Below are positions 40,434-47,920 of a stretch of 64,000 bases of DNA, one piece after another. How positions within the stretch are numbered: the first letter of the stretch is position 1; each line of letters begins with the position of its first letter. Location of the stretch: contig NZ_MDFM01000019.1 in NCBI RefSeq assembly GCF_002939985.1, positions 7,362 through 71,361 on the forward strand, read 5' to 3'. The position numbers were made by a program, and so were the translations under genes. Below the pieces are notes generated by a model. The model saw nothing but the letters and a program-made list of their open reading frames with translations. It was not told the DNA's origin and searched no databases. Origin of the DNA: Xanthomonas hortorum pv. cynarae. GTDB taxonomy: Bacteria > Pseudomonadota > Gammaproteobacteria > Xanthomonadales > Xanthomonadaceae.

Positions 40434-40880
40434 TTATTCCGCAATCAAGCTGCCCAGTCGCAAAGCCCCCTCACCGTCGTGGCCCAGGGTGTCGCCCGGA
40501 TTGCTCAGCCGGCAGCGGCGCAGCGACAGACACCCGCAGCCGATGCAGTCGGTGAGCTGGTCGCGCAGCGCCTGTAGTTCGCTAATGCGCGCATCCAGTT
40601 GCCCGCGCCAGCGCGCCGACATGCGCGCCCACTCCGCACGTGTTGGGGTGCGCTGCTCCGGCAACACCGAGAACGCCTCCAGCACCTGCTGCAAGGGCAC
40701 GCCAAGCCGCTGCGCCACGCGGATCACCGCAATCCGCCGCAACACATCGCGCGCATAACGGCGTTGGTTGCCTGCGGTACGCAGGCTGCAGATCAAGCCC
40801 TTGCGCTCGTAGAAATGCAATGCCGACACCGCCACGCCACTGCGCTTGGCCACTTCGCCCACGGACAACTCACGCTGCAT
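40434..40880 (-). CDS. soxR: Redox-sensing transcription activator SoxR
   Basis: The 148-residue MerR-family regulator has the N-terminal winged helix ([21 protein letters not shown]), a dimerisation helix, and the [2Fe-2S] motif C-x2-C-x-C-x5-C (Cys112, Cys115, Cys117, Cys123). Oxidation of the cluster by redox-cycling compounds or superoxide activates it. Outside enterics, SoxR usually switches on efflux pumps and oxygenases rather than soxS, and here an MFS pump is divergent with a perfect SoxR box between. Confidence 0.95.
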
Positions 40881-40888
40881 TGCCTTGA

Positions 40889-40906
40889 CCTCAACCTTGG
40901 TTGAGG
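40889..40906 (+). promoter_or_regulatory. Perfect SoxR box
   Basis: CCTCAA-CCTTGG-TTGAGG is a perfect 18-bp palindrome matching the CCTCAA-N6-TTGAGG SoxR operator. It overlaps a TTGACC hexamer (40885-40890). A weak -10-like GATGCT (40910-40915) lies 19 bp from it, the stretched spacing that MerR-family activators correct. Confidence 0.9.
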
Positions 40907-40980
40907 CAGGATGCTGCGCGGCCATGACCGGTGCAAGTACCGATGTCATGGCTGTGCTCACGCTCGTTCCTGGATCTTCG

Positions 40981-42363
40981 ATGCCCACCGACATGCCTAC
41001 CGCAATCACCACGCCCGCCACGCCCCTGGGCGCCACGCAACCCACTTCCATTCTCGCCGCGCCGTATCGCGCCGCAACGCTGGGCATGGTCGCGCTGGTA
41101 TCGCTCAATGCCTTCGAGTCGCTGGCGGTTGCCGCCGCCATGCCGACAGTGGCGCGCGAATTGAACGGGCTGCCGCTGTACGCGCTGGCCTTCGGCGGCA
41201 CCTTGGCGACCAGCGTGGTCGGCATGACCGCCGCCGGGCGCTGGAGCGACCGGCGCGGCCCGGGCGGCGCGCTGGGTGTGGGACTGCTGTGCTTTGTGAT
41301 CGGGCTGTTGATCGCCGGGTTGGCGCCAAGCATGCCGCTACTCATCGCAGGCCGCTTGCTGCAAGGCCTGGGCGCCGGCGCGTATTCGGTGGCGCTGTAC
41401 GTCATCGTCGGGCGCCTGTATCCGGAAGCGTTGCGGCCGCGCGTGTTTGCCGCGTTTTCGGCCGGCTGGGTGGTGCCCTCGTTGATCGGGCCCGGCATCA
41501 GCGGGTTGATCGTGCAGCACGTCGGTTGGCGCTGGGTGTTTCTGTCGGTGCCGTTGCTGGCGATTCCGGCCGGGCTGATGTTGTGGCCGGCCATCCGCGG
41601 GCGCGCGTGGTCGGGCGAACCGTCCGCCGACTCCAACGCCGCGTTCGGCTGGGCGATCGGTGCGGCATTGGGCGTGCTCGGCGTGTATCTGGGCGGGCAG
41701 CTGCACGGCGTGCTGGCGTTGCTGGCGATGACGCCAGCGCTATTGCTCACGCTGTTCTGCGCCTGGCACCTGTTGCCGGGCGGCACGCTGCGGCTGGCGC
41801 GTGGCCTGCCCAGCGTAATCGCGCTGCGCGGCATTGCGGCGGCGGCCTTCTTCGGGTTCGAAGCGTTTCTGCCGTTGCTGCTGTCGCGCGAGCGTGGCCT
41901 CTCGCCGCTGCTGGCCGGCGTGGCGCTCAGCGTGGGTGCGCTGGGGTGGTTCAGCGGCTCGTGGTACCAGGGCCATAGCCGCGCCGGTTGGTCGCGCGCA
42001 CGCCTGCTCAAGACCGGTGCGTTGTTGATGTCGCTGGGCATCGTGATCAGCGCGGGCGCGGTGTGGCCGCTCATTCCGGTGCCGGTGGCGATTGCCGGCT
42101 GGGCGCTGGCAGGCCTAGGCATGGGTCTGCTGTATCCGAGTCTGTCGGTGTTGACGTTGTCGTTGTCGCCACCGGCGCAACAAGGCGCGCACAGTTCGGC
42201 GCTGCAGTTGAGCGAAGCGATTGCGGTGGCCGGCATGCTGGCGCTGGCCGGCGCGTTGTTCGCCGCGCTGCTGGCTTCCGCGACGTTGGCCGCGTACCTG
42301 AGCGTGTTCGCGTTGGCGTGGCTGCTGGCGGTGGCGAGCTTTTTCGTGGCGCGGCGGGTGTGA
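40981..42363 (+). CDS. MFS efflux transporter, probable SoxR target
   Basis: The 460-residue major facilitator carries 12 predicted helices. The loop 2-3 signature appears as [11 protein letters not shown], and motif C-like glycine/proline-rich [14 protein letters not shown] follows, typical of drug:H+ antiporters. The start is uncertain: ATG 40981 gives the family-like N-terminus, while ATGs at 40948 and 40924 lie upstream, the last almost at the expected transcription start. The SoxR box directly upstream predicts induction by redox-active toxic compounds. Confidence 0.88.
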
Positions 42364-42737: not shown

Positions 42738-43904
42738 TCAATCCACGATCACGTGCGGTACGAAGCGCGAGGTGTCGCGGGTGATCGGGCCATCGTCGTC
42801 GCGCATGCCCAGCCCGGCGGGGCGATCGGCCACGACCCAACTGCCCACCAGCGCATGCCGCCCGTCGAACACCGGCAACGGATGGTACGCCTGCAGAATC
42901 GCCGGCCCGTCCACATACGGCCCATCGGTCTGCGCGGCATCGCCCTGTGCGGTGACCAGAGAGATATTGGCACCCTCGCGCGAGAGCAGCGGCTTGCGCA
43001 CCCAGCCTGCCGTCGGCGCTTCGCCGGCTTGCGCAAAGCGTGCAGGCAGCAGGTTGGGATGGCCTTGATGGCGCTCCCACAGCAGCGGCAGGATGCCCTT
43101 GTTGCTCAGCACCGATTTCCACGCCGGCTCGATCAGGCGCACACGGTTGGCAATCAATGCCGGTCCGAAGCGCTCTTCCATCATGAATTCCAGCGGGTAG
43201 AGCTTGAACAGCGCATGGATTACCCGGTCCTGCTCATCGGTGAACCAGCCATCGGCGCTCAGGCCGATATCTTCGATGGCCACTTCCTCGGTGCTGATGC
43301 CCACCTGGTGCGCGCAATCGCGCAGATACCGCACCGTGGCGCGATCCTCCAGCGAATCGCGTACCGCTGAAAAATGCATCTGCGGCCCGATCGCACCCTC
43401 CACCGCCAGCGCGCCCAGGGTTTCGCACAGCAGGTCCTGGATCAGGTTGTACTGGTCGGTGCCCTTGGGCAACGCACCGGCGGCGATCTGTTGCTCCAGC
43501 CACAACCACTGGAAATACGCCGATTCGTACAGCGAGGTCGGCGTGTCGTAATTGAGTTCGTACAGCTTGGCCGGGCCGTCGCCGGCATAGGCCAGATCCA
43601 TGCGTCCATACAGATGAGGGTCGCGGTCTTTCCACGAATTGGCGATCCAGTCCCAGTAGAACGGCGGGATCGCCAGCTGCGTCATCAGTTGTTCCGAGCC
43701 CACCACCTCGTCCACCAACTGCATCGCCATATCGTGCAGGTCCTGGGTGGGCGCCTCGATGTCGTCCTCGATCTGGCGCAGCGAGAACGCGTAATACGCG
43801 CTTTCGTCCCAATACGGTTCGCCGTCGATGGTGTGGAAATGGAAGCCGAGCGACTCGGCCTGTTCGCGCCAATCGGCACGTTCTGCAATTGCGATCCGTT
43901 GCAT
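42738..43904 (-). CDS. Glutathionylspermidine synthase-like ATP-grasp amidoligase (YjfC/YgiC type)
   Basis: The 388-residue protein equals the C-terminal ATP-grasp synthetase part of glutathionylspermidine synthase, with no amidase domain. Recognisable pieces are the ELNYDTPTSLYESAYFQW segment, IEPAWKSVLSNKGILPLLWE and the late GWVRKPLLSREGANI. It would ligate an amine or peptide to a carboxylate with ATP; in E. coli the YjfC/YgiC paralogues do not make glutathionylspermidine, so the product is unknown. It is the last gene of the yjf-like operon, one base after the DUF1190 stop codon. Confidence 0.92.
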   Translation of the reverse strand: MQRIAIAERADWREQAESLGFHFHTIDGEPYWDESAYYAFSLRQIEDDIEAPTQDLHDMAMQLVDEVVGSEQLMTQLAIPPFYWDWIANSWKDRDPHLYGRMDLAYAGDGPAKLYELNYDTPTSLYESAYFQWLWLEQQIAAGALPKGTDQYNLIQDLLCETLGALAVEGAIGPQMHFSAVRDSLEDRATVRYLRDCAHQVGISTEEVAIEDIGLSADGWFTDEQDRVIHALFKLYPLEFMMEERFGPALIANRVRLIEPAWKSVLSNKGILPLLWERHQGHPNLLPARFAQAGEAPTAGWVRKPLLSREGANISLVTAQGDAAQTDGPYVDGPAILQAYHPLPVFDGRHALVGSWVVADRPAGLGMRDDDGPITRDTSRFVPHVIVD

Positions 43905-43905
43905 G

Positions 43906-44484
43906 TCAGCCGCCGTATCCGGAACTGCGCCCGCCGCTGCCGAACGAACTGCGCGCCGCCGCACTGGAGCCGAAACCCGAGCGCGACACTGTGATCGCAC
44001 GCGACGGCATGTCGATGGCGCCGCTGCGCCCGCGCACGGTGCCGATACGGTTGCTGGCCAGATCGCCATTGGGTTTGTAGTAACCGCCGCTGCGGTAATC
44101 GCGATACAGCGGCATCGCGCCGCCGTAGCGGTAGCCGCCGCCACCGCTCATGTTGCCCAGCGCATAGCCCAGCAGAAACCCGCCCATCGGCGGAATCCAG
44201 CTGTGCTGGCCCTGGGTCTGCCCCGGCACCTCGGTGCAGCTGCCGAACTGCGCATCGCACTCGTAGCGCGAATTGAAGCGCGGCGCAGCCTGCTGATGCT
44301 TGGCCACCGCCTCGTCGTAGGCCTTGAGGCATTGCTGGATGTCGGTCTGTTCCTGCTTGATCTGGTAGCAGTCGGAGGCCGACTGCAGCACCACACCTGT
44401 CTCTGGTTCAGAACCACAACCGGTGACGAGGGCGGCCGGCAAGGCGGCCATCAAGGTGAGCTTGAGATTGCGTGAGCGCTTCAT
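43906..44484 (-). CDS. DUF1190 lipoprotein (YjfM/YgiB type)
   Basis: The 192-residue protein has a lipoprotein signal (lipobox LVTGC, Cys at 23), a cysteine-containing globular part (SASDCYQIK, QQCLKAY, YECDAQFGSC) and a Gly/Ser/Arg-rich C-terminal tail (GGGGYRYGG, SSFGSGGRSSGYGG). In E. coli this family always sits before the YjfC/YgiC amidoligase, as here. The Gly/Ser tail looks like a substrate or surface tail for modification, but that is inference. Confidence 0.88.
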   Translation of the reverse strand: MKRSRNLKLTLMAALPAALVTGCGSEPETGVVLQSASDCYQIKQEQTDIQQCLKAYDEAVAKHQQAAPRFNSRYECDAQFGSCTEVPGQTQGQHSWIPPMGGFLLGYALGNMSGGGGYRYGGAMPLYRDYRSGGYYKPNGDLASNRIGTVRGRSGAIDMPSRAITVSRSGFGSSAAARSSFGSGGRSSGYGG

Positions 44485-44496
44485 GCCTGTACTCCG

Positions 44497-44901
44497 TTAC
44501 GGCGTGATCGCCGCAGCATTGATCAGCCCGACCGCGATCGACACGCCGGCCGAAAAGATGCCCGCCGCAGCGACGTTGTCGGTGATCTGCCGCGAGATGC
44601 GCCCGGCCACCACGTTGGCCAGCAGATACGCCACGATCTGAATCCCGCAGGCGACCGCGCCCCAGATCAGCGCATCGACCAGGCTCACCGAATGAGTGAT
44701 GGCCGAATGCAGCGGCAATGCCACACCGATGAAGTTGCCGGCCAGCGCGGTGGCCGCAGCCACGTTGCCCTGCCGCAGCAAGGTGAAGTCCTTGTGCGGG
44801 GTGACCAGGGTCACCAGCACCACCGCGACGATCAACACGCCCAGACCGGTGCCGAAATAGGAGAGAAACGCGAGAAAACTCTGCAGGTTGATCGGGTTCA
44901 T
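44497..44901 (-). CDS. DUF350 membrane protein (YjfL type)
   Basis: The 134-residue protein has four predicted membrane helices in two similar halves (the DUF350 repeat), beginning MNPINLQSFLAFLSYFGTGL. It is 12 bp upstream of the DUF1190 gene and 37 bp downstream of the DUF2491 gene. DUF350 proteins recur with amidoligase and PspA genes. Their activity is unknown. The ATG at 44901 is chosen; the longer frame to 45066 overlaps the previous gene. Confidence 0.88.
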   Translation of the reverse strand: MNPINLQSFLAFLSYFGTGLGVLIVAVVLVTLVTPHKDFTLLRQGNVAAATALAGNFIGVALPLHSAITHSVSLVDALIWGAVACGIQIVAYLLANVVAGRISRQITDNVAAAGIFSAGVSIAVGLINAAAITP

Positions 44902-44938
44902 GACAGGACCAAGGTAAGTGGAAGACGAGCGCGCACGC

Positions 44939-45610
44939 TCAGGTGATATCCAGATCGGCGACGGTGACATCGATGCCGACCGCGTAGGTGACGCAGAATT
45001 CGTTGGGGCCGGAATCCTCGCCGGTGACCAGCAGAAATTCCTCACGCTGCAGCTCCGGCACATCACGGCTGTAGAGCATGGCGTAATGGGTCAGATCGCC
45101 ATCTCGACGCGGCGGCTGATAGCGGTACAGCACTTCGTCGTAGGCGATCGGCGGGATCCGCGCGGCATCGTCGGTGGACTGGGTGGCGCGCTCCCAACGT
45201 TTGCCGGCGTAGTCGATCTGCGCCGCACCCAGATGCGGATGCTGCATCACGAACTCCTGAAACGCCTGCTTGCTGGGCGGATTGACCGTCTCGCAATACA
45301 CGAACGCCTTCATCGCCTCCAGATCGCCGCCCACGGTGGTGACCTGCAAGAACGCATCGTCGTCCAGATAGAACCGATGCAGGGAATAGCCATCGCCCAG
45401 ATTGACGTGGCCATAGCACGGGATGCCTTGATGGCCGCCCGGCAGCTCGGCGGTCATGGCCTCCGGCGCCATGCGATACAGGGTGGTGTCGATCTCTACC
45501 TGCCCCCCCACACGCAAGCCCAACGGCAGCGTGTGGCCGATCGCGCCGGTGCCGGACGTGGGCGCCGCGGGCGGTTGTGGTTGACCGAACAACTTGCTGA
45601 AAAAACTCAT
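44939..45610 (-). CDS. DUF2491 protein (YjfK type)
   Basis: The 223-residue soluble protein starts MSFFSKLFGQPQ at 45610, with AAGGTG 10 bp upstream; an ATG two codons earlier is possible. It has a short Pro/Ala-rich N-terminus, then an alpha/beta domain with a strongly conserved middle (GDGYSLHRFYLDDDAFLQV). No catalytic motif is evident. It overlaps the start area of the upstream channel gene by a few bases, confirming one operon. Confidence 0.87.
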   Translation of the reverse strand: MSFFSKLFGQPQPPAAPTSGTGAIGHTLPLGLRVGGQVEIDTTLYRMAPEAMTAELPGGHQGIPCYGHVNLGDGYSLHRFYLDDDAFLQVTTVGGDLEAMKAFVYCETVNPPSKQAFQEFVMQHPHLGAAQIDYAGKRWERATQSTDDAARIPPIAYDEVLYRYQPPRRDGDLTHYAMLYSRDVPELQREEFLLVTGEDSGPNEFCVTYAVGIDVTVADLDIT

Positions 45611-45612
45611 CG

Positions 45613-46695
45613 TCATGCACCTTGTGGCGATGGGGAATGGGGAACGGCGGCAGTGCGCAGGGCGTGCCATGCGATGGCGTGCGCAGGCACGCGCTGCTCG
45701 GCCAGGTAATACAGCATGGCACCGGCCGCCACAGCGGTGTGTGCGGGCGGGTTCAACCGCAACGCACCATCTGGCGCGCGCAGGCCCAGCAACAAGGCGC
45801 CGCGCTGGCTGAAGTCGGCCGCCACGACGCGGTAATCCAGCGGGCCTGCATCGGCCGGAACCGCAAGACTGAACTGGGTGGGGCCATCGTCCACAGACAG
45901 CAGCTCGGCAGTGATCGCCGCGCTGCCGGGATCTTGCGCAGCGCGCGCCAGGATCTCGGCGGTCATCGGGCGGGTGCATTCGATGGCCGGATAGTGGCAA
46001 TTGACCAGCCGCGCGGCGCTGCCCGAATCGAAGTGCGCCACGATGTGCGCACGCGGCGCATGCGCCATCAGCGCGAACACCGCCGCCAGGGTCTGATCGT
46101 CGGATGGCGGATTGACGATCACCCGCGCCGCGCCCGCGATGCCCGCACGCAGATACACGTCCGTGTGCGTATACGACTCGGCGGCGATAAAGCGCATGTG
46201 GTCGGGCATCGGGTTCTCGGCCACGCCCTCGGCGATCAGCACCACGCCTTCGTCATCCGTGGCGGTGTCCGAGAGCAACAGCTCCAGCAAACGCGCGGAG
46301 GCGGCGCCCTGCCAGCCGATCAGAATGGTGTGCCCGTGCAGATCGGCGTAAGCCATCTTGCCCATGTGGTGGCGCCTCCAGAAAGTGATGAGCACACCGC
46401 TGGTCTTGGCCAGCACCGTGGCGAACAGCGCCACCGCGCCTGGCATCAACACGAACGCGGCGATATAGCGCCCGGCCACCGAGCCCGGCGACAGGTCGCC
46501 ATAGCCGATGGTGGTGGCGGTGGTCATGTAGTAGTACGGAAATGCATCCAGGCCGACGAGCTTGTGCTCGCCAGCCATCAACAACAACGCCCAACTCACG
46601 CCCATATGCGCCAGCAGCGCCAGCGCCACCACGCCCCAGCTGACGCGGCGCACATGGCGCCGCAATACCTGGAACAACCGTCCGACGATGATCAT
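45613..46695 (-). CDS. Two-helix K+ channel with C-terminal TrkA-N/RCK-like domains
   Basis: The 360-residue protein has an N-terminal pore module: two membrane helices around the selectivity filter TTATTIGYGD (62-67 for TIGYGD), followed by a nucleotide-binding RCK-like domain (about 112-250, HTILIGWQGAASA) and a C-terminal TrkA-C-like part. It is not part of the E. coli yjf operon and is inserted here between pspA and the DUF2491 gene. The final residues (VPHSPSPQGA) are encoded by a GGGAATGG-type repeat, so the C-terminus may have been altered by it. Confidence 0.9.
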   Translation of the reverse strand: MIIVGRLFQVLRRHVRRVSWGVVALALLAHMGVSWALLLMAGEHKLVGLDAFPYYYMTTATTIGYGDLSPGSVAGRYIAAFVLMPGAVALFATVLAKTSGVLITFWRRHHMGKMAYADLHGHTILIGWQGAASARLLELLLSDTATDDEGVVLIAEGVAENPMPDHMRFIAAESYTHTDVYLRAGIAGAARVIVNPPSDDQTLAAVFALMAHAPRAHIVAHFDSGSAARLVNCHYPAIECTRPMTAEILARAAQDPGSAAITAELLSVDDGPTQFSLAVPADAGPLDYRVVAADFSQRGALLLGLRAPDGALRLNPPAHTAVAAGAMLYYLAEQRVPAHAIAWHALRTAAVPHSPSPQGA

Positions 46696-46720
46696 GGCGC
46701 GTCCTGTGCCGTGCGGTGGA

Positions 46721-47491
46721 TCAGCTGTCGCTGCGCGGAACCTGCTGTACGTCGCGCACCTGGCCGATCAGCGGCGCGGTGCCGCTCGCGCTGTCGTGGC
46801 CGAGTTGGGCCGGCTTCTTGAAGCGTGCCAGCACTGCGGCAGCGTTGGACTCGCCTTCCATCAGGCCAGCCGCGGCCAGACGCCGATTAAGATCGCCATC
46901 GCCGCTGGACGATTCGAGCTCTTCGGCCGATTCGATGCGTGCAGAAGTCTCGGCCTGACGCGCCTTGATGCGCTCCAGCGATTCCAGCGCCGAGCCCATC
47001 TTGCTGCTGGCACCGGAATGCCGCGCGGCAATCGCCGCCTGCGCCTTTTGCACCGCGTCGGTGGCCTTGACCGTATCGATCTGCTGGCGCATGCCGCGCA
47101 GCTGGTTTTCGGTCTTCTGGATGGTGGCCTTGAGCGTCACCACCGACTGGTCCAGCGCCGTCTTGGAGGCCTTGTCGCCGGCGTCTTCGCTTTCCAGCGC
47201 GGCGAGCTTTGTCGCCACATCGTGGGCCAGCGATTCATCTCCCTTGGCCAGCGCACCTTCGATGTAGCGCGTGTATTCGGCCATCTTGCCGGCACGCGCG
47301 TCGATCTTCTGCTGGGCCAGCTTGCTCTGTGCCATCAGCTTGGTGAGCTCTTCGCGCGAACGCGTGAGCTGGGCACCGGCATCGCGCATTTCCTGGTCCA
47401 GGATGCGCAGCGCATTGGCGTCGACCGCCTTCTGGCCGGTTTCGTGTGCAGTGCCACGCAGCAGCGTGATCAACTTTGAAAAGATACTCAT
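46721..47491 (-). CDS. PspA/IM30-family protein (YjfJ type)
   Basis: The 256-residue protein is almost wholly alpha-helical coiled coil, as in PspA, starting MSIFSKLITLLRG with an amphipathic membrane-touching helix. It should assemble on the inner membrane under stress. No PspF/PspBC genes are near, so it is the YjfJ-type paralogue tied to the amidoligase operon and not the classic phage-shock locus. Confidence 0.92.
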   Translation of the reverse strand: MSIFSKLITLLRGTAHETGQKAVDANALRILDQEMRDAGAQLTRSREELTKLMAQSKLAQQKIDARAGKMAEYTRYIEGALAKGDESLAHDVATKLAALESEDAGDKASKTALDQSVVTLKATIQKTENQLRGMRQQIDTVKATDAVQKAQAAIAARHSGASSKMGSALESLERIKARQAETSARIESAEELESSSGDGDLNRRLAAAGLMEGESNAAAVLARFKKPAQLGHDSASGTAPLIGQVRDVQQVPRSDS

Positions 47492-47503
47492 GACAACACG
47501 CCT

Positions 47504-47920
47504 TTAGGAAAAGTACGGCTTGAGAGATTCGGCGGCATCCAGCGTATTGGCCGCCAGGGTCTGGATTTCCTCGTCGATCTGGTCGAGCGTGGACGACGCC
47601 GACAGCTCGCCAAAGACCACGTAGCTATCCTTGCCGTCGACCTGCACCAGGCCCAGGTTGGATAAAGGATTAAGCGGATTGAGCCGCAGGCAGGCGTCGT
47701 TGAAGGCGGCGCGGTCGCTGACCTGGTCGGCATTGGCCAGCAGCGTGGAAACGAACACCTGCGAGCCGGAGGCGGCAACCTGGATCTGCATGTCGCCGTG
47801 GTCGGCCAGGGTGAGGTTGATGGCCGGTTCCAGCCCGTCGATCAGCTCGACCTCGATCGGCTGGTCGCGGTAGCGCTCGGCCAGCAGGCCGTGCAATTCG
47901 ACAGTGGTGTACTGCGTCAT
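47504..47920 (-). CDS. DUF2170 protein (YjfI type)
   Basis: The 138-residue soluble protein starts MTQYTTVELHG at 47920 with AGGAC upstream and is the first gene of the seven-gene operon, 12 bp before pspA. Conserved pieces include VSTLLANADQV and LRLNPLNPLSNLGL. Its role is unknown; in E. coli it precedes yjfJ in the same order. The 126 bp upstream to the acetyltransferase stop should hold the operon promoter. Confidence 0.87.
   Translation of the reverse strand: MTQYTTVELHGLLAERYRDQPIEVELIDGLEPAINLTLADHGDMQIQVAASGSQVFVSTLLANADQVSDRAAFNDACLRLNPLNPLSNLGLVQVDGKDSYVVFGELSASSTLDQIDEEIQTLAANTLDAAESLKPYFS

What the first reader, a model, noticed from the sequence alone, without database searches (positions are those of the whole stretch)
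42738..47920. yjf-like amidoligase operon with a K+-channel gene inserted
Seven minus-strand genes match E. coli yjfI-yjfJ-yjfK-yjfL-yjfM-yjfC in order (DUF2170, PspA, DUF2491, DUF350, DUF1190 lipoprotein, ATP-grasp amidoligase), but a TIGYGD channel with an RCK-like domain sits after pspA. Gaps are 1-37 bp. A membrane-stress protein, an ion channel, a small membrane repeat protein and a peptide-forming ligase together suggest an envelope-stress or modification system with unknown product. The DUF1190 protein's Gly/Ser-rich tail could be the ligase target (inference).
Basis: partly seen in the sequence, partly recalled or inferred. Interest (0 to 1): 0.8.

Follow-up and report, generated by a model that had tools for sequence, protein, structure and literature searches.

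The report
Ligase paired with tail-bearing lipoprotein
This is a Xanthomonas-type copy of an already described stress operon, and comparing many genomes suggests what its puzzling enzyme may act on: the end of a neighbouring envelope protein, which carries a short signature almost wherever the enzyme was found.

Summary
In detail: seven intact minus-strand genes (yjfI-pspA-K+ channel-DUF2491-DUF350-DUF1190 lipoprotein-ATP-grasp ligase), gaps 1-37 bp; E. coli has the same order without the channel. The operon type is not new: Ravi et al. 2024 describe this gene set, channel included. The channel is not an insertion: 28 of 35 genomes of the genus have it whole, four keep remnants in place, and X. 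maliensis has a scar. DUF1190 proteins at ligase loci end in a GFG motif, a Ser/Gly/Arg tail and a last pair GG, GS or SS (78 of 79; the exception looks frameshifted; shuffled tails average 26 of 78). All 39 standalone ligases of a 249-genome sample have such a gene (GFG 36, GYG 1, GGF 2) within about 3 kb, even where its body is not recognisable as DUF1190; 8 of 8 GspSA-type loci lack the strict motif; 6 of 6 DUF1190-like genes away from a ligase lack the tail. Most likely the ligase recognises the tail and joins a polyamine to its end. That chemistry is inferred, and topology is a real difficulty (cytosolic enzyme, exported protein). The other genes are optional layers around this pair.

The parts
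47504..47920 (-). yjfI, DUF2170 (CesT/Tir-like chaperone domain according to Ravi 2024), 138 aa; first gene of the operon
   Evidence: Pfam PF09938 E 2.3e-44
46721..47491 (-). pspA/yjfJ, PspA/IM30 family, 256 aa
   Evidence: Pfam PF04012 E 2.7e-40
45613..46695 (-). K+ channel, 2TM pore with TIGYGD filter and RCK-like domain, MthK-like, 360 aa; ancestral in the genus but expendable
   Evidence: Pfam PF07885 E 2.5e-10; MthK 3rbz E 7.9e-13 over residues 8-329; alignment A4 of 14; full length in 28 of 35 genomes of the genus
44939..45610 (-). DUF2491 (yjfK), 223 aa (225 if the ATG at 45616 is used); beta-rich predicted fold, no clear structural match
44497..44901 (-). DUF350 (yjfL), small membrane protein, 134 aa
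   Evidence: Pfam PF03994 E 1.7e-35
43906..44484 (-). DUF1190 lipoprotein (yjfM), 192 aa: lipobox Cys23, four further Cys invariant in the alignment, mildly hydrophobic middle segment, conserved C-terminal tail
   Evidence: Pfam PF06693 E 2.9e-32; alignment A2 of 51
43909..43983 (-). C-terminal tail of the DUF1190 protein: R168-S-GFG (R168, G170, F171, G172 invariant in A2), then a Ser/Gly/Arg-rich stretch ending Gly-Gly; proposed ligase recognition and acceptor site
42738..43904 (-). ATP-grasp ligase of the YgiC/YjfC family (GSP_synth, no amidase domain), 388 aa; proposed to join a polyamine to the DUF1190 C-terminus
   Evidence: Pfam PF03738 E 1.4e-149; PDB 7uk8 YgiC E 2.4e-127 and 7uk6 YjfC E 1.3e-124; R101, D103, E116, N118, K304, R368 identical in four GspSA-type proteins

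Best explanation
The core of the operon is a two-gene system: an exported envelope protein (here a DUF1190 lipoprotein) with a dedicated C-terminal tail (R-x-GFG, then a flexible Ser/Gly/Arg stretch ending in Gly-Gly) and an ATP-grasp ligase of the glutathionylspermidine-synthetase family that recognises this tail. The ligase most likely activates the terminal carboxylate with ATP and couples it to a polyamine (the genome has speD-like and speE-like genes), as GspS does with the Gly end of glutathione (recalled), before the protein leaves the cytosol. This would give a lipoprotein with a cationic tip, able to bind phosphates of membrane lipids or LPS. DUF350, then yjfI-pspA-DUF2491, then the channel are optional layers, presumably linking the modification to membrane repair and ion balance under envelope stress. 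Shown here: gene set, tail signature, its tie to standalone ligases largely independent of the protein body, loss pattern of the channel. Inferred: tail as substrate, the amine, timing before export, purpose.
For: (1) In 80 named ligase loci a DUF1190 gene is present in 79; 78 of 79 end in GG (60), GS (9) or SS (9); the other (L110, a MAG) has a DUF1190 frame that runs past the ligase start and looks frameshifted. The six other operon families in the same loci end in GG 0 of 256 times, in GS once, in SS never. Shuffling each tail after GFG gives on average 5.8 GG and 26 [GS][GS] ends of 78 (maximum 14 and 44 in 2000 shuffles) against 60 and 78. R168, G170, F171 and G172 are among the nine residues invariant in 51 aligned DUF1190 proteins. 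(2) The strict motif [GSA]GFG-x(3,30)-[GS][GS]-end occurs in 102 of 16,061 mechanical ORFs from 120 loci: 90 are DUF1190 and 12 are other ORFs at the ligase loci. (3) In the 249-genome sample I count 39 standalone ligases; 25 have a tailed DUF1190 and the 14 without a Pfam-detectable DUF1190 all have another gene with such a tail within about 2.3 kb, 12 of 14 ending [GS][GS]. Eight such proteins scanned (seven of the 14, plus L124) have no Pfam match over cut-off. (4) 0 of 8 GspSA-type loci (621-656 aa frames) have the strict motif. 6 of 6 DUF1190-like genes not near a ligase lack a GFG tail. (5) 61 of 63 DUF1190-bearing genomes carry a GSP_synth gene against 44 of 249 genomes overall. (6) The ligase keeps R101, D103, E116, N118, K304 and R368 of GspSA (roles recalled), and RefSeq names its E. 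coli relatives peptide--spermidine ligases. (7) AdoMet_dc and Spermine_synth genes are in the genome.
Against: No biochemical evidence; correlation only. Topology: 74 of 79 DUF1190 proteins have a lipobox and the small tail proteins have one N-terminal hydrophobic stretch by eye, so the tail should end up outside the cytosol while the ligase needs ATP inside; modification would have to precede export. C-termini are not uniform (GS, SS, and single cases GT, AS, GE), and GYG, GGFT and GGFK replace GFG in a few. With a relaxed motif (G[FYW]G or GGF) 116 ORFs match, of which seven look like chance, one of them an unassigned ORF in a GspSA-type locus, L162. In G012 two more DUF1190-like ORFs sit beside the ligase without a tail. 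The tail could be a docking or inhibitory element. DUF1190-like genes away from ligases are weak homologues (E 1e-18 to 1e-4), so their lack of a tail may mark another subfamily.
Confidence: 0.57

Rival explanations
1. The tail is a docking or regulatory element: the ligase binds it for localisation or control, while its true acceptor is a small peptide or metabolite.
For: Tail and ligase co-occur without proof of catalysis; the topology problem eases if only an interaction is needed; the last residues vary (GG, GS, SS, single GT, AS, GE).
Against: The compositional anomaly lies at the very last two residues, where a carboxylate acceptor would be; a docking motif alone would not need a particular C-terminal pair.
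Confidence: 0.2
2. The tail serves export, sorting or envelope binding of the lipoprotein and is not seen by the ligase; the association reflects operon inheritance.
For: The protein is a lipoprotein with a flexible, basic, Ser/Gly-rich end; YgiB was found in tolA-mutant vesicles (PMC7973035, one passage seen).
Against: Of the seven families the ligase is the only one at all tail loci (34 of 80 loci have just DUF1190 and ligase; other neighbours were not analysed); the tail persists where Pfam does not recognise the body and where DUF1190 is on the opposite strand (7 loci: L106, L114-L116, L119, L129, L130).
Confidence: 0.17
3. One reading: a K+ channel gene was inserted into a yjf operon to make a new envelope-stress module.
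For: E. coli lacks the channel, and 18 of 37 pspA-bearing loci lack it.
Against: The channel follows pspA and precedes DUF2491 in 18 of 19 loci that have it (in L114 it is on the opposite strand with DUF2491); 28 of 35 genomes of the genus have it whole and four keep remnants beside an intact DUF1190 gene; X. maliensis has a 462-bp stretch with the channel's upstream context and a weak C-terminal remnant; Ravi 2024 lists a potassium channel as part of the operon.
Confidence: 0.05

Closest known systems
CesT/Tir-PspA operon with ATP-grasp ligase, third group of Ravi et al. 2024 (PMC11237479; example AMJ95269.1)
   Same: All seven families, channel included
   Different: They call DUF1190 a metal-chelating lipoprotein; the passages I saw do not mention its C-terminal tail or a ligase substrate; I did not read the whole text or its supplements
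E. coli yjfIJKLMC
   Same: Same order for six genes; YjfM ends SRGGYG...HWGG
   Different: No channel; yjfIJKL is proposed as a heat-tolerance operon after laboratory evolution (PMC12492005, passages seen)
E. coli ygiB-ygiC
   Same: Minimal pair: DUF1190 ending TRGGFG...SMGG plus ligase
   Different: No DUF350, PspA, DUF2491 or channel beside it; downstream of tolC
GspSA, bifunctional glutathionylspermidine synthetase/amidase
   Same: Same ATP-grasp synthetase domain; six compared site residues identical
   Different: Longer (with amidase), uses glutathione (recalled); 8 of 8 GspSA-type loci have no strict-motif tail gene
MthK (Ca2+-gated K+ channel)
   Same: 2TM pore plus RCK aligned over residues 8-329
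   Different: Weak similarity (51.5 bits); ligand unknown
P. aeruginosa bac operon (BacA = DUF2170, BacB = PspA; PMC10948618, passages seen)
   Same: Same first two genes
   Different: Other partners; its authors propose a sigma54 promoter, which I could not support for this operon

Membership tests
Ravi 2024 group 3 operon | DUF2170 (CesT/Tir) - PspA dyad | tested here: met
   adjacent genes, gap 12 bp
Ravi 2024 group 3 operon | ATP-grasp ligase, K+ channel, DUF350, DUF1190 and DUF2491 in the same gene run | tested here: met
Ravi 2024 group 3 operon | Co-transcription | not testable with these tools
   gaps of 1-37 bp suggest it; no RNA data
YgiC/YjfC peptide-spermidine ligases | GSP_synth domain without amidase, close to 7uk8/7uk6 | tested here: met
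   388 aa, GSP_synth covers residues 12-386
YgiC/YjfC peptide-spermidine ligases | ATP/Mg and arginine residues of the GspS site | tested here: met
   R101, D103, E116, N118, K304, R368 identical in four GspSA-type proteins; K263 is Thr there; roles recalled
YgiC/YjfC peptide-spermidine ligases | Spermidine ligation to a peptide | not testable with these tools
   needs an enzyme assay; the paper is known to me by title only
MthK-type 2TM-RCK K+ channel | K+ selectivity filter TxGYGD | tested here: met
   TIGYGD; G64-Y65-G66-D67 invariant in 14
MthK-type 2TM-RCK K+ channel | RCK domain | tested here: met
   MthK alignment to residue 329; but Pfam TrkA_N only 16.5 bits, below its 23.8 cut-off
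MthK-type 2TM-RCK K+ channel | Gating ligand | not testable with these tools
   electrophysiology needed
Classical sigma54-driven psp system | -24/-12 promoter before the first gene | tested here: inconclusive
   TTGCACG-N4-TTGCT 53 bp before yjfI, with TG instead of the -24 GG; same score in 2 of 5 named Xanthomonas loci; 2 of 37 loci at p<=0.05 (consensus recalled)
DUF1190 | Pfam PF06693 over its gathering score | tested here: met
   112.6 bits against 22

The most novel reading that the evidence does not exclude
A previously unrecognised protein modification: envelope proteins that share little but a C-terminal RGGFG...[GS][GS] tail are capped by a polyamine at their terminal carboxylate by a dedicated ATP-grasp ligase, a two-gene modification system spread through Pseudomonadota (YgiBC, YjfMC and, in other lineages, small tail proteins with no recognised family). 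The tail behaves like a portable modification tag.
Probability: 0.45. Interest if true: 0.82.

Novelty: new variant of a known kind. Interest (0 to 1): 0.6.

Why it matters
The YgiC/YjfC enzymes have structures and an assigned activity but, as far as I could search, no named natural substrate. A conserved tail that travels with the ligase on otherwise dissimilar envelope proteins turns that open question into a simple test in E. coli K-12. If right, it adds a C-terminal polyamine cap to the known protein modifications and ties polyamines to envelope proteins and PspA membrane-stress operons. It also corrects the view of the channel: an ancestral, expendable layer, not an insertion.

Tried and rejected
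Sigma54 promoter: near-consensus before yjfI, but only two of five named Xanthomonas loci share the score, the -24 GG reads TG, and 2 of 37 loci reach p<=0.05; not claimed. Sigma70 and terminator scans gave chance levels.

Tail in the cytosol through a second membrane helix: the conserved middle segment of DUF1190 is only mildly hydrophobic (best 17-residue Kyte-Doolittle mean after residue 45 about 0.2-1.5), and the small tail proteins show no second segment by eye; not supported.

DUF1190 structure: not obtained.

'Metal-chelating lipoprotein' (Ravi 2024): the Cys residues are invariant in A2 but I have no test of metal binding; disulfides are equally possible. Not adopted.

Motif near-misses: 18 of 119 ligase loci lacked the strict motif: the 8 GspSA-type loci, and ten standalone: L088 RRGFG, L098 RRNGFG, L177 RQGFG, L169 and L178 RGGYG, L148 and L149 RGGFT/RGGFK, L151 ends AS, L152 ends GE, L110 apparent frameshift. 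A relaxed motif finds 116 of 16,061 ORFs, 14 beyond the strict ones: seven are these ligase-side tails and seven look like chance. Tails examined: 29 DUF1190 matches (after read minus-strand loci in the wrong orientation and was discarded), 79, 20, 30 of the 34 matches of the genus. The new loci L183-L202 were fetched but not examined for tails, apart from genomes re-fetched. Of 18 ligase-linked loci all have a GFG motif and 17 end [GS][GS] (L204 ends GT).

Literature: 9 of 10 searches used. Searches with YjfI-YjfC names, PspA/DUF350/ATP-grasp/channel, YgiC, YgiB, DUF1190, YjfM, spermidine ligase, spermidinylation, C-terminal spermidine, amidoligases with lipoprotein, and the DUF set gave, in listings (capped at 30 or 40 of 60 and 118 papers) and in the passages I opened, no paper that names the tail or a natural substrate. 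The works most likely to discuss it, Pederick et al. 2023 and a 2009 amidoligase survey that I recall as Iyer et al., are not held, so priority is unsettled.
Full report
Observation. The seven genes are as described. They start with ATG, have no internal stops and are separated by 12, 25, 2, 37, 12 and 1 bp. Pfam assigns DUF2170, PspA_IM30, Ion_trans_2, DUF2491, DUF350, DUF1190 and GSP_synth. E. coli K-12 has yjfI-J-K-L-M-C in this order with no channel. The channel aligns with MthK through pore and RCK parts. The window's genome has one GSP_synth and one DUF1190 gene and genes matching AdoMet decarboxylase and spermidine synthase. I take the source as Xanthomonas because named Xanthomonas loci are 89-96% identical in the ligase; the genome itself is unnamed.

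What was already known. Ravi et al. 2024 (PMC11237479; passages seen) describe a third group of CesT/Tir-PspA operons containing an ATP-grasp peptide ligase related to glutathionylspermidine synthetase, a potassium channel, DUF350, DUF1190 and DUF2491. The window holds a member of this group. RefSeq names YjfC and YgiC peptide--spermidine ligases, following Pederick et al. 2023, which I know only as a title in reference lists. The closest solved structures are YgiC and YjfC (7uk8, 7uk6).

Distribution. HMM annotation within 8 kb gives strict nesting: 34 loci with DUF1190 and ligase only, 8 adding DUF350, 18 with six families without the channel, 19 with all seven, 1 with ligase only (L124, which has a differently bodied tail gene). 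The channel was never found without the other six. In seven alphaproteobacterial loci DUF1190 is on the opposite strand from the ligase.

The channel. It is not an insertion. Of 35 genomes of the window's genus, 28 have it full length, one is cut by a contig end (G407), four show remnants or a broken copy beside an intact DUF1190 gene (G406, G416, G417, G426), one has no hit at the locus (G421) and one incomplete genome lacks both genes (G425). X. maliensis (L065, perhaps the same genome as G421) has a 462-bp stretch between pspA and DUF2491 that keeps the sequence preceding the channel start and a weak C-terminal remnant (40 residues, 37.5%, E 0.93). Over the ligase tree the channel label needs nine changes among pspA-bearing loci, eight of them forced by well supported branches, so it comes and goes easily.

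The tail. DUF1190 proteins of these loci are lipoproteins (lipobox in 74 of 79). In 51 aligned sequences four further Cys, one Pro and R168, G170, F171, G172 are invariant. After GFG come 8-30 residues (35 in the frameshifted-looking L110) rich in Ser, Gly, Arg and Ala. The last two residues are GG in 60, GS in 9 and SS in 9 of 79; the six other families of the operon have GG 0 of 256, GS once, SS never. Shuffles of the same tails give on average 5.8 GG and 26 [GS][GS] of 78, so the end itself is selected. In 30 of 34 matches of the genus examined all end GG. Loci are related, so these are not independent events.

Tests of the tie to the ligase. A strict tail motif occurs in 102 of 16,061 mechanical ORFs of 120 loci, all at standalone ligase loci; a relaxed motif adds 14, seven ligase-side tails and seven chance-like ORFs, one in a GspSA-type locus. 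In the unnamed 249-genome sample I count 39 standalone ligases, 8 GspSA-type proteins (621-656 aa) and 2 fragments. All 39 standalone ligases have a tail gene near: 25 by DUF1190 (all ending GG, GS or SS) and 14 by other or barely detectable bodies, 12 of which end so; the motif is GFG in 36, GYG in one, GGFT/GGFK in two. The tail gene neighbours the ligase in most; in G111 and G119 it lies about 2.3-2.6 kb away. None of the 8 GspSA-type loci has the strict motif. With the tail removed, a DUF1190 body HMM gives E from 3e-8 to 0.36 in a tiny database of 15 such proteins, so some are remote DUF1190 relatives and others are not recognisable; Pfam sees none over cut-off in the eight scanned. Conversely, six DUF1190-like genes away from any ligase (G087, G187 three times, G369, G382:C22) lack the GFG tail; they are weak homologues, and the one in G087 still ends GS. 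Two weak DUF1190-like ORFs beside the ligase of G012 also lack it, although that locus has its tailed DUF1190. Of 63 DUF1190-positive genomes 61 have a GSP_synth gene.

Mechanism. GspS activates the Gly carboxylate of glutathione and couples it to spermidine (recalled). The window ligase keeps the corresponding site residues and differs at T121-P122-T123, K263, S308, E310, G354 and W356, where a larger acceptor could be accommodated (inference). A conserved GFG anchor at variable distance from a small, free C-terminus is what one would expect of an enzyme that grips the anchor and feeds a flexible end into the active site (inference). The main difficulty is that the tail protein is exported; the C-terminus is the last part to leave, so modification before export is possible but unshown. 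A polyamine-capped basic tip could bind anionic lipid or LPS phosphates; PspA, DUF350 and the channel would be the membrane-protection side (inference).

What did not help. Sigma54 site, promoter and terminator scans, DUF2491 fold search. A DUF1190 model could not be made. Whole-proteome uniqueness of the tail could not be tested.

Verdict. Operon: a further member of a described group, channel ancestral and expendable. Added value: a testable substrate assignment for an orphan ligase family. Interest 0.6.

Noticed in passing
L071 (JAHREJ010000011.1): A record titled Bacillus subtilis SK7B5 carries a Stenotrophomonas-like ligase locus, which groups inside Stenotrophomonas in the tree: likely contamination or mislabelling.
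   Followed up: partly
L096, L104, L105, L108: In these Pseudomonas loci about 0.3-0.9 kb lies between pspA and the channel, room for another gene in some; in L108 the channel appears as two ORFs.
   Followed up: no
L155:6535-7005: A second tail-like ORF follows the DUF1190 gene in another frame, perhaps a duplicated tail.
   Followed up: no
L157:6669-8000: Two more weak DUF1190-like ORFs without the tail follow the ligase.
   Followed up: no
L124, L140-L144, L153: Small tail proteins of these genomes carry an FGKR stretch before their single hydrophobic segment (by eye); meaning unknown.
   Followed up: no
window 40434-42363: An MFS-type transporter ORF on the plus strand and a SoxR/MerR-like ORF on the minus strand lie beside the operon (names by eye).
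   Followed up: no
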